Shown here: in pieces, positions 1,851 to 6,168 of the stretch
Position numbering within the stretch: position 1 is the stretch's first letter
Layout: every line of letters starts with the position of its first letter
Assembly (NCBI RefSeq): GCF_001663815.1
Contig: NZ_CP016027.1
Location: 2,666,501 to 2,730,500 of the forward strand
Length of the DNA stretch: 64,000 nucleotides
From: Halothiobacillus diazotrophicus
Lineage (GTDB): Bacteria; Pseudomonadota; Gammaproteobacteria; Halothiobacillales; Halothiobacillaceae
Direction: 5' to 3'
Translations under genes and position numbers: made by a program
The notes under the pieces: generated by a model
The model's database searches: none
What the model saw: the letters and a program-made list of their open reading frames with translations, nothing else
What the model was told of the DNA's origin: nothing

Positions 1851-4122
1851 CGTTCCGGTGCCGGATTTCGAACACACTGCGTCGATGCGGTGTGCGGGCG
1901 AAATCCATGGGCAGAGTTTTTCGCGATAAGTCATTGATTTGGTATTCATCCGTCAAACTTGGCGACAATTTAAAGCCTTTCAGGTTATTTGAAAAGATTA
2001 ATGTGCCTTCTGGCGCTAACAGATGCATGCATTGTTGCACGAGTGTCACATGATCCCGCTGGATATCCAGGGTGTCCGCCATGGATTTCGAATTCGAGAA
2101 GGTCGGTGGGTCGCAGAAGATCACATCGTACCGATCCGGGCGATAGGGCCCTTGCTGGCGCTGATTCAGCCAGTCCAGCACGTCGGCGCGCAGCAGTTGG
2201 TGCGCATTGCCGGTCGGAATGTCGTTGAGGGCGAAATTGTCTTCCGCCCAGTCGAGGTAGGTGTTCGACAGGTCGATGGACAGGGTCTGCGCGGCGCCCT
2301 GGTGGGCGGCTCGGACCGACGCCGTTGCGGTATAGCAGAACAGGTTGAGCAGGCGTTTCCCTCGGGCGAGTTCGGCGACCCGGTCGCGTACCTGACGGTG
2401 ATCGAGGAACAGACCGGTGTCGAGATAGTCGGTCAGGTTGATCCGCAACCGCGTGCCGCCCTCGATCACGACCCGCTCCAGTCGTTCCTGGGTGATTTTC
2501 TGATACTGATCCTGCCCCGTCTGTCGGCGGCGCTGGCGGACCACGGCGTGGTTGGGGGCGAGTTCCAGCGTTTCCATGGCCTGATGGACGGCAACGGCCA
2601 AACGGCCACGCGCCAATTGGGGATCGACGGAGTGCGGCGCCCGGTACTCCTGGATATCCGCCCAGGTCTCGCCCTGCTCGTCCCGGTAGAGATCGATGGC
2701 CAGATTGAAGTCCGGCAGATCGGCGTCGTATACCCGGAAGCAGCAGAGCCCTTCTCGTTCGGCCTGGCGTTTTACGTGGCGGAAGTTCTTCTGCAGTCGA
2801 TTGGCGAAGGGCGTCGGGTCGACCAGTTCACGGGCCTGCTCGGCCGCGTTCGCCAGCTTGTTTGCCAGGCCGATCGGCCCGGGTGCCTCCCGTCGACTCT
2901 TGGTGTCGAACGTGCCCCGGATCAGTTCGATCGCAATGCCGCCATGATCGAAGGGAAAGGCCCGCTCGTAGCGCAGCGGCCAGCGCTGCCCCATGCCTTC
3001 GGGCAACAGGACCGCCCAGTGCCAGCCGTTGAAGCAGCGCTGCCAGGCATCGATCAGCGGGCCCCAGTCCGGGGTCTCGGTGGATGTGTAGGCATCGAGT
3101 CGGTGCCCGTAGGGCAGATTGCTGATCAGCAACCCGGTGTCGTGCCCTTCAAGTGGCGTGGGGCAGGGCTGCGCCCAGGCATCGGCCACCTGGAAATCGA
3201 TGAGATGATCCACCTCGGCCAGTCGGGCGTTTTCCCGGGCCGTGGCAATCTGTTCGCCATCGATGTCCCGACCGATCAACAAAGGCGCGTCGGCGGGTTC
3301 AATGAGCGGGGCGGATTGGTCGAGCACGGCTTGCCGGGCGGCGGTATCGTGGCCGAGCCAGCCCGGCGAACCCAGTCGGCGCGCCCGCATGGCAGGCGGC
3401 AGTCCGGTCAGGCGGAGGGCCGCTTCGATCAGGAGCGTGCCGGAACCGCACATGGGGTCGAACAGCGCGGCACCGTTCTGCGCCAGCTGCGGCCACCGTG
3501 CCCGCCAGAGGATGCCTGCGGCCAGGTTTTCGCGCAGGGGCGCCAATCCGCCCAGTTGACGGTACCCGCGACGATGCAGGGAGCCCTCGGACAGTTCGAT
3601 CGAGATGTTCGTGTGCCCTTGTGCCGTGATGTGGCAGTGCAGCCGCAGGTCCGGCTGTTCCGTGTCGATGCTGGGTCGACGGCTGTCCCGCTCGCGAAAA
3701 TGATCGACGATCGCGTCCTTCAGGCGGGTGGCGATGAACCCGGTATGACGCAGCTGCTCCGTCCCGCCGGTGGCGGAAATGGCGAAATAGGTGTCGGCGG
3801 TCATGTGCCGGTGCCAGGGAATCTGGCGGCCGAGGGCATATAGCTCGTCGGCGGTCGCTGCCTGTCCGCTGGCCAGCGCGTAGTACACATGACCGGCGAT
3901 GAGGCTGTCGCAGACGATGCGGTAGGTTTGCGCGGGGGTCGCGTCCAGTTGCACACCGAAGGGCCGATCGGAGATCCGGGCGTCTACGAGACTGCGGATT
4001 TCCTCGGCCAATGGCGCCTGCAGGTCGGCGGCCGTCACGACGGTGATTGGCCAGGTCGGCGTTGGCAGCGATGCGTCGGTTGCGTTTTCGCGATCGTTCG
4101 CGGCGGGGTCTGCGGGATTCAT
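1843..4122 (-). CDS. rlmL: bifunctional 23S rRNA m2G2445/m7G2069 methyltransferase RlmKL
   Basis: This fusion methyltransferase modifies 23S rRNA at G2445 (N-terminal RlmL half) and G2069 (C-terminal RlmK half). The protein has a THUMP region, then an RlmL SAM domain with DPMCGSGTLLIEAA, and a C-terminal RlmK domain with CDPPTFSNSK. The RlmL catalytic loop reads SNLPYGHRL, where the family usually has NPPY. ATG 4122 (759 residues) is preferred. The frame is open to 4251, but the extra 43 residues are unlike the family and reach into the inverted-repeat element. Its 3' end overlaps the downstream NlpC/P60 start. Confidence 0.92.
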   Translation of the reverse strand: MNPADPAANDRENATDASLPTPTWPITVVTAADLQAPLAEEIRSLVDARISDRPFGVQLDATPAQTYRIVCDSLIAGHVYYALASGQAATADELYALGRQIPWHRHMTADTYFAISATGGTEQLRHTGFIATRLKDAIVDHFRERDSRRPSIDTEQPDLRLHCHITAQGHTNISIELSEGSLHRRGYRQLGGLAPLRENLAAGILWRARWPQLAQNGAALFDPMCGSGTLLIEAALRLTGLPPAMRARRLGSPGWLGHDTAARQAVLDQSAPLIEPADAPLLIGRDIDGEQIATARENARLAEVDHLIDFQVADAWAQPCPTPLEGHDTGLLISNLPYGHRLDAYTSTETPDWGPLIDAWQRCFNGWHWAVLLPEGMGQRWPLRYERAFPFDHGGIAIELIRGTFDTKSRREAPGPIGLANKLANAAEQARELVDPTPFANRLQKNFRHVKRQAEREGLCCFRVYDADLPDFNLAIDLYRDEQGETWADIQEYRAPHSVDPQLARGRLAVAVHQAMETLELAPNHAVVRQRRRQTGQDQYQKITQERLERVVIEGGTRLRINLTDYLDTGLFLDHRQVRDRVAELARGKRLLNLFCYTATASVRAAHQGAAQTLSIDLSNTYLDWAEDNFALNDIPTGNAHQLLRADVLDWLNQRQQGPYRPDRYDVIFCDPPTFSNSKSMADTLDIQRDHVTLVQQCMHLLAPEGTLIFSNNLKGFKLSPSLTDEYQINDLSRKTLPMDFARTPHRRSVFEIRHRNDA

Positions 4123-4240
4123 TTCGGGCTTGTCTCTATCTTCAATCGCGTGACTGTACCGGAATTGCGGCGGTTTGTTCACAACTGCATGGTTGGTCCG
4201 TGACGTTGCTGCCTGCAAATGTCGCGGCGGAGATTGCTCG

Positions 4241-4269
4241 GGCCTGTTCACACTAAATCCAAATCAGCG
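4241..4269 (+). repeat. left terminal inverted repeat of the MITE-like element
   Basis: This 29-base end is the reverse complement of 4475-4503 with one mismatch at its 24th base. Confidence 0.85.
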
Positions 4270-4474
4270 CTGGAGCCCCAACACGGGCCAGGCAAGGCAC
4301 GAGGAGCGCGGTTTGGTTTTTCCATATGAACCACGAGCAACGCCGCATGGCCCGTGTTAGGGCCCAGCCCCAAGGGACGGGACCGTTTTTCCCCGGAACT
4401 GCGTTGCATTTCGCTTGTGTGCACAAAGCACACCGCGCTCAATGCGCCTTGTTCCGCGGAAAAACGGCCTACGT

Positions 4475-4503
4475 CGCTGGTTTGGATTTAGTGTGAACAG
4501 GCC
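4475..4503 (-). repeat. right terminal inverted repeat of the MITE-like element
   Basis: This is the partner of 4241-4269. It ends 52 bases before the ATG of the ABC ATPase gene, so the element replaced or interrupted that gene's promoter region. Confidence 0.85.
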
Positions 4504-4554
4504 CTAGACTGCATACAGCCCAGTTTGCCCGCTTGTACCGAGGATGTTGAAGTC

Positions 4555-6168
4555 ATGCCCCTGGCGCACCCCGCCCCATCATCGGATTCACCGCTGCTTT
4601 CCATTCAGCACCTCACGGCGCGTTTCGATGCGGCATCGCCCGTGCTTTCCGAGATTTCCCTGGACATCCAGCCAGGCCAGCGGGTGGCGCTTGTGGGGGA
4701 ATCCGGTTCGGGCAAGACGATCACCGCCCTGTCGATACTGCGTCTGCTGGATGCCGTCCAGTACGATTCGGGCAGTATCCGGTTCGGCGATCTCGACCTG
4801 CTGACGGCCCCCGAATCCACTTTGCGTACCGTGCGGGGGCGGTCGATCGGCATGATTTTCCAGGAACCGATGACGGCGCTCAATCCGTTGAAGACGATCG
4901 GTGCGCAGATCGCCGAGGTGATCGTCGAGCATGAAGGCGGGAGCAAGACGGATATTCAGGAGCGTGTCATCGAACTTCTCCGGCAGGTGCAGTTGCCGGA
5001 TCCGGAATGGCGGGCTCGGTCGTTTCCCCATCAATTGTCGGGCGGGCAGCGGCAGCGGGCGATGATTGCCATGGCGCTGGCCTGTCGTCCGCGTCTGCTG
5101 ATTGCCGATGAACCGACCACGGCGTTGGACGTCACTTTGCAGGCACAGATCATGGAATTGCTGACCGCCCTGCAGGCGCAGTTCGGCATGGCGCTGCTCC
5201 TGATTACCCACGATCTGAATCTGGTGCGGCGGCATGCCGACTGGGTCGCGGTGATGCAACATGGTCGGATCGTGGAGCAGGGGGATGTTGCTGGGTTATT
5301 CCGTGCGCCGGAACACCCTTATACCCGCACGCTGCTGGCCGCCGTGCCGAAGCCAGAACCCTTGCCCCCGGTCGATCCGAGCGCGCCCCCTGTTCTTGCC
5401 GCCGAGCGCCTGTCCGTTCGGTTCGCCCAAGGGGGCGGGGCGCCGCGTCGCTGGTGGCAAAGGGCACCGGATTTTCGGGCGCTGGACGGGGTGTCGCTGA
5501 ACTTGGCACCCGGGGAAACCCTCGGCGTGATCGGCGAGTCCGGTTCCGGGAAAAGCACCTTGGCTTTGGCCCTGCTGCATCTGATTCCCGCCGAGGGACG
5601 GATCGATGTGGTCGGGCAGTCGGTTCAGGGTTATTCAGAGCGCCGATTCCGTTCCCTCCGGCGTCATATCCAGATTGTGTTTCAGGACCCGTTCGGCGCC
5701 TTGTCCCCCCGCATGACGGTCGGCGAGATCATCGGCGAGGGACTCAGCGTGCATGAACCGCAGCTGGATGCCACTGCCCGCCGGGCGCGGATCCGTGCCG
5801 CGATGGCGGATGTGGGGCTGGACGAATCCGGCATGCACCGGTATCCCCACGAGTTTTCCGGGGGACAGCGCCAGCGGATCGCTATTGCGCGCGCCCTGAT
5901 CCTGCGCCCCAAAATCCTGATTCTTGATGAGCCGACCAGCGCACTGGATGCCACCGTGCAAAAGCAGACGCTGGATCTGTTGCGTCAGTTGCAGCGCGAT
6001 CATGGCCTGAGTTATCTGTTCATTACCCACGATCTGCGGGTGGTGCGGGCGATGGCACACCGCGTGATGGTGCTGTACCGGGGGCAAGTGGTCGAAACGG
6101 GGAACACCGGCGACGTGTTCTCGGCCCCACAGCATCCCTATACGCAGACGCTGGTCGCCACCGTGTGA
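4555..6168 (+). CDS. fused dipeptide/oligopeptide ABC transporter ATPase (DppD-DppF / YejF-like)
   Basis: Two complete ABC ATPase domains are joined in one 537-residue chain. Both have Walker A GESGSGK(T/S), signatures LSGGQRQR and FSGGQRQR, and Walker [12 protein letters not shown] and [11 protein letters not shown]. They correspond to the DppD and DppF subunits that power peptide, microcin or nickel import, fused as in YejF. ATG 4555 has GAGG 11 bases upstream; the frame extends to a TTG at 4525. No permease or binding protein is visible on either side. The partner subunits are therefore elsewhere, or the gene is an orphan left beside the MITE-like element. Substrate cannot be read from the sequence. 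Confidence 0.88.

What the first reader, a model, noticed from the sequence alone, without database searches (positions are those of the whole stretch)
4241..4503. 263-bp MITE-like element with nested palindromes
The 29-base ends match at 28 positions and two more inverted repeats fill the interior, so the RNA or single-stranded DNA could fold almost completely. There is no transposase. The element separates rlmKL from the ABC ATPase and lies just upstream of the ATPase start.
Basis: seen in the sequence. Interest (0 to 1): 0.52.

Follow-up and report, generated by a model that had tools for sequence, protein, structure and literature searches.

The report
Hairpin-cored IS5-type miniature transposon
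This is one copy of a widespread miniature transposon without a transposase gene, which uses the ends of an IS5-type insertion sequence; unusually, its interior is a conserved set of hairpins whose two sides have changed together across many bacteria.

Summary
In detail: a 265-bp element (4240-4504) with 29-base ends matching at 28 positions and two internal inverted repeats (folding z about -12 to -14). The MITE reading is supported. The genome has a second full copy and a half copy; nine same-genus genomes have none; joined flanks align across the empty site in six of eight relatives. The ends match IS5/IS427-type insertion sequences, and genome G148 holds both IS and miniature element. Insertions sit in YTAR with TA duplicated (78 of 120).

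The unexpected part is the interior. It is not a transposase remnant but a cloverleaf of hairpins carrying two inverted copies of one 51-nt cap. Across 35 diverse elements, 74 of 88 pairs show double changes (613 cells against 171 shuffled). G-T and A-C mismatches are about equal, so DNA-level maintenance is likelier than RNA. One own-genome copy has hairpin B inverted. The cap occurs with at least six kinds of terminal repeat; hairpin A is in 48 of 398 phylum genomes. I found no description in the papers searched. What the core does is not shown; a cis-acting DNA role or hairpin-templated copying are the main options.

The parts
4240..4504 (.). whole miniature element, 265 bp
   Evidence: ends from alignment with other copies
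4240..4268 (+). left terminal inverted repeat
   Evidence: 28 of 29 match with right end; tip shared with IS elements in G142 and G148
4476..4504 (-). right terminal inverted repeat
4505..4506 (.). right TA of the target duplication; the left counterpart 4238-4239 reads TC, presumably mutated
   Evidence: family-level TA on both sides in 78 of 120 copies
4275..4363 (+). hairpin A (arms 4275-4293 and 4345-4363)
4293..4343 (+). 51-nt cap module A in the loop of hairpin A
   Evidence: conservation
4368..4376 (+). small central hairpin (CCC/GGG)
   Evidence: helix 5 of the consensus fold
4383..4467 (+). hairpin B (arms 4383-4399 and 4451-4467)
4401..4451 (-). 51-nt cap module B, inverted relative to module A, 35 of 51 identical to it

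Best explanation
A non-autonomous IS5/IS427-group element. An IS427-type transposase supplied in trans recognises the GGGCCTGTTMACACTA ends and inserts the 265-bp unit at YTAR, duplicating TA (ends, target and partner IS shown by sequence; mobilisation in trans inferred). The window copy is probably old: no such transposase is detectable in this genome and its left TA is degraded. The interior is a cloverleaf of hairpins built from two inverted copies of one 51-nt cap module. Its stems change on both sides together while the module A cap changes least. I infer that the structure is kept at the DNA level, as a cruciform or a folded lagging strand, where it both holds the ends together and lets one arm template the other (hairpin-templated copying). 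That copying would also explain the inverted hairpin, the collapsed end-only forms and the symmetric exchange of terminal-repeat types.
For: Copies: own genome 2 full and 1 half; 5 of 57 relatives, own genome included; 36 of 369 class genomes; 48 of 398 phylum genomes with hairpin A, 36 of them outside the class. IS with the same ends: G142, TIR TAGGGCCTGTTAACACTA, 251-aa DUF4096/DDE protein; G148, 5 IS copies by protein match, one read in full with ends GGGCGTGTTAACACTAAT and two overlapping frames, beside 13 full-length miniature copies at 91-100%. Target: TA on both sides in 78 of 120, outer bases Y and R in 72 of those 78; IS427-group ISs of Paracoccus have mostly 2-bp repeats, 832-865 bp and overlapping frames (PMC3281130, passages). 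Length 264-266 in 86 of 120. Structure: 93.9% of cells paired against 72.4% shuffled and at most 41.9% slid; 613 double-change cells against 170.9. DNA level: G-T 47, A-C 51 in the main stems of the 35-row set; 44 and 33 in 48 equal-length copies. Hairpin B inverted in the second own copy: 49 of 56 reversed, 34 of 56 forward. Modules A and B 35 of 51 identical, best of 2000 shuffles 24.
Against: No experiment. No matching transposase in G000, G024, G041, G235, G230 or G374, nor one between the variant ends in the listed sites of G047, G194, G301, so the partner is inferred for most hosts. G142, with the cleanest IS, holds no miniature copy. TA is missing on one or both sides in 42 of 120, the window's left side among them. 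Among very close copies (top identity bin, 10 pairs) I saw 23 one-arm changes and no double ones, so arm-to-arm copying is not instantaneous. Between close copies B stem and B cap change about equally fast (0.065 and 0.060 per site) and the A cap changes faster than the A stem (0.056 and 0.022), so 'stems vary, caps do not' holds only in the deep alignment, clearly for module A (0.87 against 0.71-0.72) and weakly for B (0.74 against 0.67-0.70).
Confidence: 0.72

Rival explanations
1. The covariation is a by-product of mutation: template switching during replication copies one hairpin arm onto the other, and no function of the core is selected.
For: Fully inverted loops and multi-base compensatory changes are the marks of this process (PMC8794818, abstract and passages); hairpin B is inverted in 2 of 110 scorable elements; end-only collapsed forms exist in G041.
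Against: The module A cap is conserved across two classes and several end types, and 86 of 120 copies have the same length to within one base, which mutation alone does not predict; the closest copies show one-arm changes only.
Confidence: 0.3
2. A structured RNA or cis-regulatory element transcribed from the element and selected as RNA.
For: Very stable RNA fold; compensatory changes; MITE-derived small RNAs are reported in Coxiella (PMC10969869, passages).
Against: G-T hardly commoner than A-C (47 and 51; 44 and 33); hairpin B occurs in both orientations; six Rfam matches, all far below gathering score; no promoter- or terminator-like site; position not conserved.
Confidence: 0.1
3. An ordinary MITE: a degenerate deletion derivative of one IS whose interior is neutral.
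For: Shared ends and target with IS427-type ISs.
Against: The IS of G148 and that of G142 show no such hairpins between their ends (sequence, judged by eye); structure conserved far beyond one genome.
Confidence: 0.08

Closest known systems
MITEs of prokaryotes (review PMC10969869, passages read)
   Same: short, non-coding, terminal inverted repeats, target duplication, partner IS, stable fold
   Different: interior conserved with covarying stems across classes and shared by elements with different ends
IS5 family, IS427 group (PMC3281130, passages read)
   Same: mostly 2-bp duplication, about 800 bp, overlapping frames; partner ISs here have DUF4096 and DDE_Tnp_1 and the same tips
   Different: no transposase gene in the element; long inner repeat and hairpins absent from the ISs
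REP/REPIN elements (PMC3116915, search listing only; details recalled)
   Same: two inverted hairpin units separated by a spacer
   Different: IS-type terminal repeats with TA duplication; cap module of 51 nt
QMITE2 of Coxiella burnetii (PMC10969869, passages read)
   Same: MITE of about 190 bp with 23-29-base ends and a stable fold
   Different: 7-9-bp direct repeats; different size

Membership tests
MITE | under 500 bp, no transposase gene | tested here: met
   265 bp; no open frame of 80 aa or more inside
MITE | terminal inverted repeats | tested here: met
   28 of 29
MITE | target-site duplication | tested here: met
   family: TA on both sides in 78 of 120; the window copy itself is degraded (TC/TA)
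MITE | multiple dispersed copies | tested here: met
MITE | partner autonomous IS with the same ends | tested here: met
   in G148 and G142; not in this genome
MITE | mobilised in trans | not testable with these tools
   needs a transposition assay
IS5/IS427 group (as source of the ends) | 2-bp duplication, IS4/5-family DDE transposase | tested here: met
   the group name rests on these features, ISfinder was not available
REPIN | no IS-type ends (recalled) | tested here: not met
   IS-type ends with TA duplication present
REPIN | mobilised by a RAYT transposase (recalled) | not tested
   RAYT genes were not searched
structured RNA (Rfam) | match to a curated family at gathering score | tested here: not met
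structured RNA (Rfam) | G-U tolerated over A-C in stems | tested here: not met
   47 against 51; 44 against 33

The most novel reading that the evidence does not exclude
The 51-nt hairpin cap is a mobile-DNA part in its own right: a structure-recognised module, present twice in inverted order, that has been combined with at least six kinds of IS-type ends and so lets one miniature core parasitise several transposases. Ends would be exchanged by changing one and copying it to the other through the hairpin. Solo caps with their own stems and no recognisable ends exist in some genomes.
Probability: 0.3. Interest if true: 0.8.

Novelty: new variant of a known kind. Interest (0 to 1): 0.58.

Why it matters
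MITE interiors are usually treated as leftovers. Here the interior outlasts the ends: it is shared between elements with different terminal repeats and across at least two classes, in about a tenth of the genomes sampled. If it is selected, it is a natural test of whether DNA hairpins help small elements move or survive. If it is kept by template switching, it is a large natural record of that mutational process in bacteria.

Tried and rejected
Four-base CTAG duplication: rejected, because left and right outer bases combine freely (C/G 38, T/G 17, C/A 9, T/A 8), as YTAR with TA duplicated predicts. RNA family: no Rfam match at gathering score. Viral or phage carriage: no exact match to the module A pattern in viral contigs and no match of the window element in phages or plasmids; other family members give partial matches on plasmids of Azotobacter, Halomonas, Methylophaga and Pseudomonas. 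A partner IS for the variant ends of G047, G194 and G301: none seen in the listed sites. Eight hosts of genome contigs searched with the IS427-type protein: 1 of 8 had a match, not followed. Literature: nine searches; five sequence strings from the family gave no paper. The library holds open-licence PMC papers only and ISfinder was not searched, so 'undescribed' is limited to that.

Rows dropped before counts: elements whose flanks were too short or whose arms scored under 12 were skipped; one search lost 4 of 124 whose tips did not fit the trimming pattern (120 left); the 35-row alignment was chosen from 82 facing elements of 255-275 bp at no more than 86% identity. Small end-type clusters include mis-trimmed rows (L040, L057, L103, L176) and a deleted tip (L041); I did not count these as types. 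One search's query was not the exact element: it covered part of it plus flank (my coordinates were off); one search's query was also approximate.

Full report
What is there. The element occupies 4240-4504 (265 bp), between divergent genes: rlmKL (minus strand, ATG at 4122) and a two-domain ABC ATPase (plus strand, ATG at 4555). The 29-base ends match at 28 positions; two more inverted repeats lie inside. The folding energy is far below that of shuffled sequences for DNA and for RNA.

It is a mobile element. The one-contig 2.9-Mb genome has three copies: the window copy, a full copy at 85% (1488844-1489111) and a half copy at 97% (1452035-1452153). None of nine other genomes of the genus has a match; in the family, one genome of another genus has one nearly full-length copy (G024) and a second (G017) only a 22-bp match; two genomes of other families have 12 and 13 matches. 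In the class 36 of 369 genomes match. Joined window flanks align across the junction in 6 of 8 same-genus loci (L258, L259, L261-L264; 61-71% identity) and in pieces in two (L260, L265).

Ends and partner. A pattern search for the tip found 37 of 369 class genomes, with no hit listed for the reversed control. In G142 two tips enclose a 251-aa protein with DUF4096 and DDE_Tnp_1. G148 has five IS copies by protein match; the one that I read has the tips GGGCGTGTTAACACTAAT and two overlapping frames with DUF4096 and DDE_Tnp_1. The same genome has 13 full-length miniature copies at 91-100%. IS427-group elements of Paracoccus have mostly 2-bp direct repeats, and some carry overlapping frames (PMC3281130, table and passages). 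Among 120 trimmed elements TA flanks both sides in 78, and the next bases are Y and R in 72 of these. No match to the G142 protein was found in this genome. Insertions avoid long open frames: 39 of 102 against 1170 of 1355 random points in the same loci.

The interior. I aligned 35 elements chosen to be no more than 86% identical. The consensus fold is a long terminal stem with hairpin A, a small central hairpin and hairpin B. Of 88 pairs, 74 show a change on both sides; 93.9% of cells pair, against 72.4% in shuffles and at most 41.9% when slid; double-change cells number 613 against 170.9 (sd 11.5). Mean majority frequency is 0.87 for cap A and 0.71-0.72 for its stem, 0.54-0.55 for the inner terminal stem, 0.74 for cap B and 0.67-0.70 for its stem. 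Lengths are 264-266 in 86 of 120.

Two copies of one module. The cap of A (4293-4343) and the reverse complement of the cap of B (4401-4451) agree at 35 of 51 ungapped positions; the best of 2000 shuffles reached 24. In most elements the two face each other: 108 of 124, with 2 in which B points the other way and 14 unscorable. One of the two is the second copy in this very genome, whose B loop fits the window's at 49 of 56 when reversed and at 34 of 56 when not, while the parts around it agree at about 92%.

DNA or RNA. If one RNA strand were selected, G-U should be tolerated over A-C. In the main stems of the 35-row set there are 47 G-T and 51 A-C (terminal, A and B stems, summed from the table); in 48 equal-length copies 44 and 33. 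With the inverted hairpin and the absence of promoter-like, terminator-like and Rfam matches, the DNA level is likelier. The counts are small and the copies related, so this is a lean, not a proof.

Selection or copying. Template switching can make compensatory changes and invert loops (PMC8794818, abstract and passages), and would also explain collapsed forms of about 43 bp in G041 made of little but the ends (L073, L088, L093). Against copying alone stand the conserved A cap and the fixed length. In the closest bin (10 pairs) there were 23 one-arm and no two-arm changes; at about 95% identity 361 one-arm and 110 two-arm changes against 12 expected if the arms were independent (pairs are not independent of each other). 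Between close copies the A cap changes faster than the A stem (0.056 and 0.022 per site), so the conservation of the cap shows at depth only.

Several kinds of ends. With cap A at 81-96% of the consensus, I saw tips such as GGGCCTGTTMACACTA (by far the commonest), GAGCCTRTCYRTRAATAA, GGGWCTGTT- types in Pseudomonas, GGGAAGCACYGATKTATT, GAACCTATCTCAAAAATC and GGGGTGTGTCATCAGTTA. Some share a GGnCTGTT core and may be related. Hairpin A occurs in 48 of 398 genomes drawn from the phylum: 12 of the class (this one included) and 36 outside it, 34 of these in one family.

Verdict. The MITE reading is supported with high confidence. The novelty is the conserved, modular, structure-bearing core. Its function is not shown; I lean to a cis-acting DNA structure that is also edited by hairpin-templated copying. 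No call named the window's organism.

Noticed in passing
L073, L088, L093 (G041), about position 1500: Forms of about 43 bp consisting of little but the two ends, and shorter internal-deletion forms in L087 and L094.
   Followed up: partly
L318, L320, L321, L326, about position 1500: Solo hairpin A with its own stem and no recognisable terminal repeats; in three of these it sits at what looks like the same place, before the same kind of gene, with differing stems (by eye).
   Followed up: partly
L145, L163, L168, L170, L171 (Pseudomonas, Stutzerimonas): Elements with the usual hairpin A but a different cap in the second hairpin, and different ends.
   Followed up: no
L150, L167, L169, L162: Small extra hairpins inserted in the central spacer; 7 of 120 elements are 292 bp and 5 are 283 bp.
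   Followed up: no
L226, L232: The flanks of these two insertions are themselves inverted repeats, as if the element had landed in a hairpin.
   Followed up: no
L101, about 1500-1780: Another inverted-repeat element nested inside an element end pair in G107.
   Followed up: no
G374: 86 forward and 88 reverse tips in one genome, with no IS427-type protein match.
   Followed up: no
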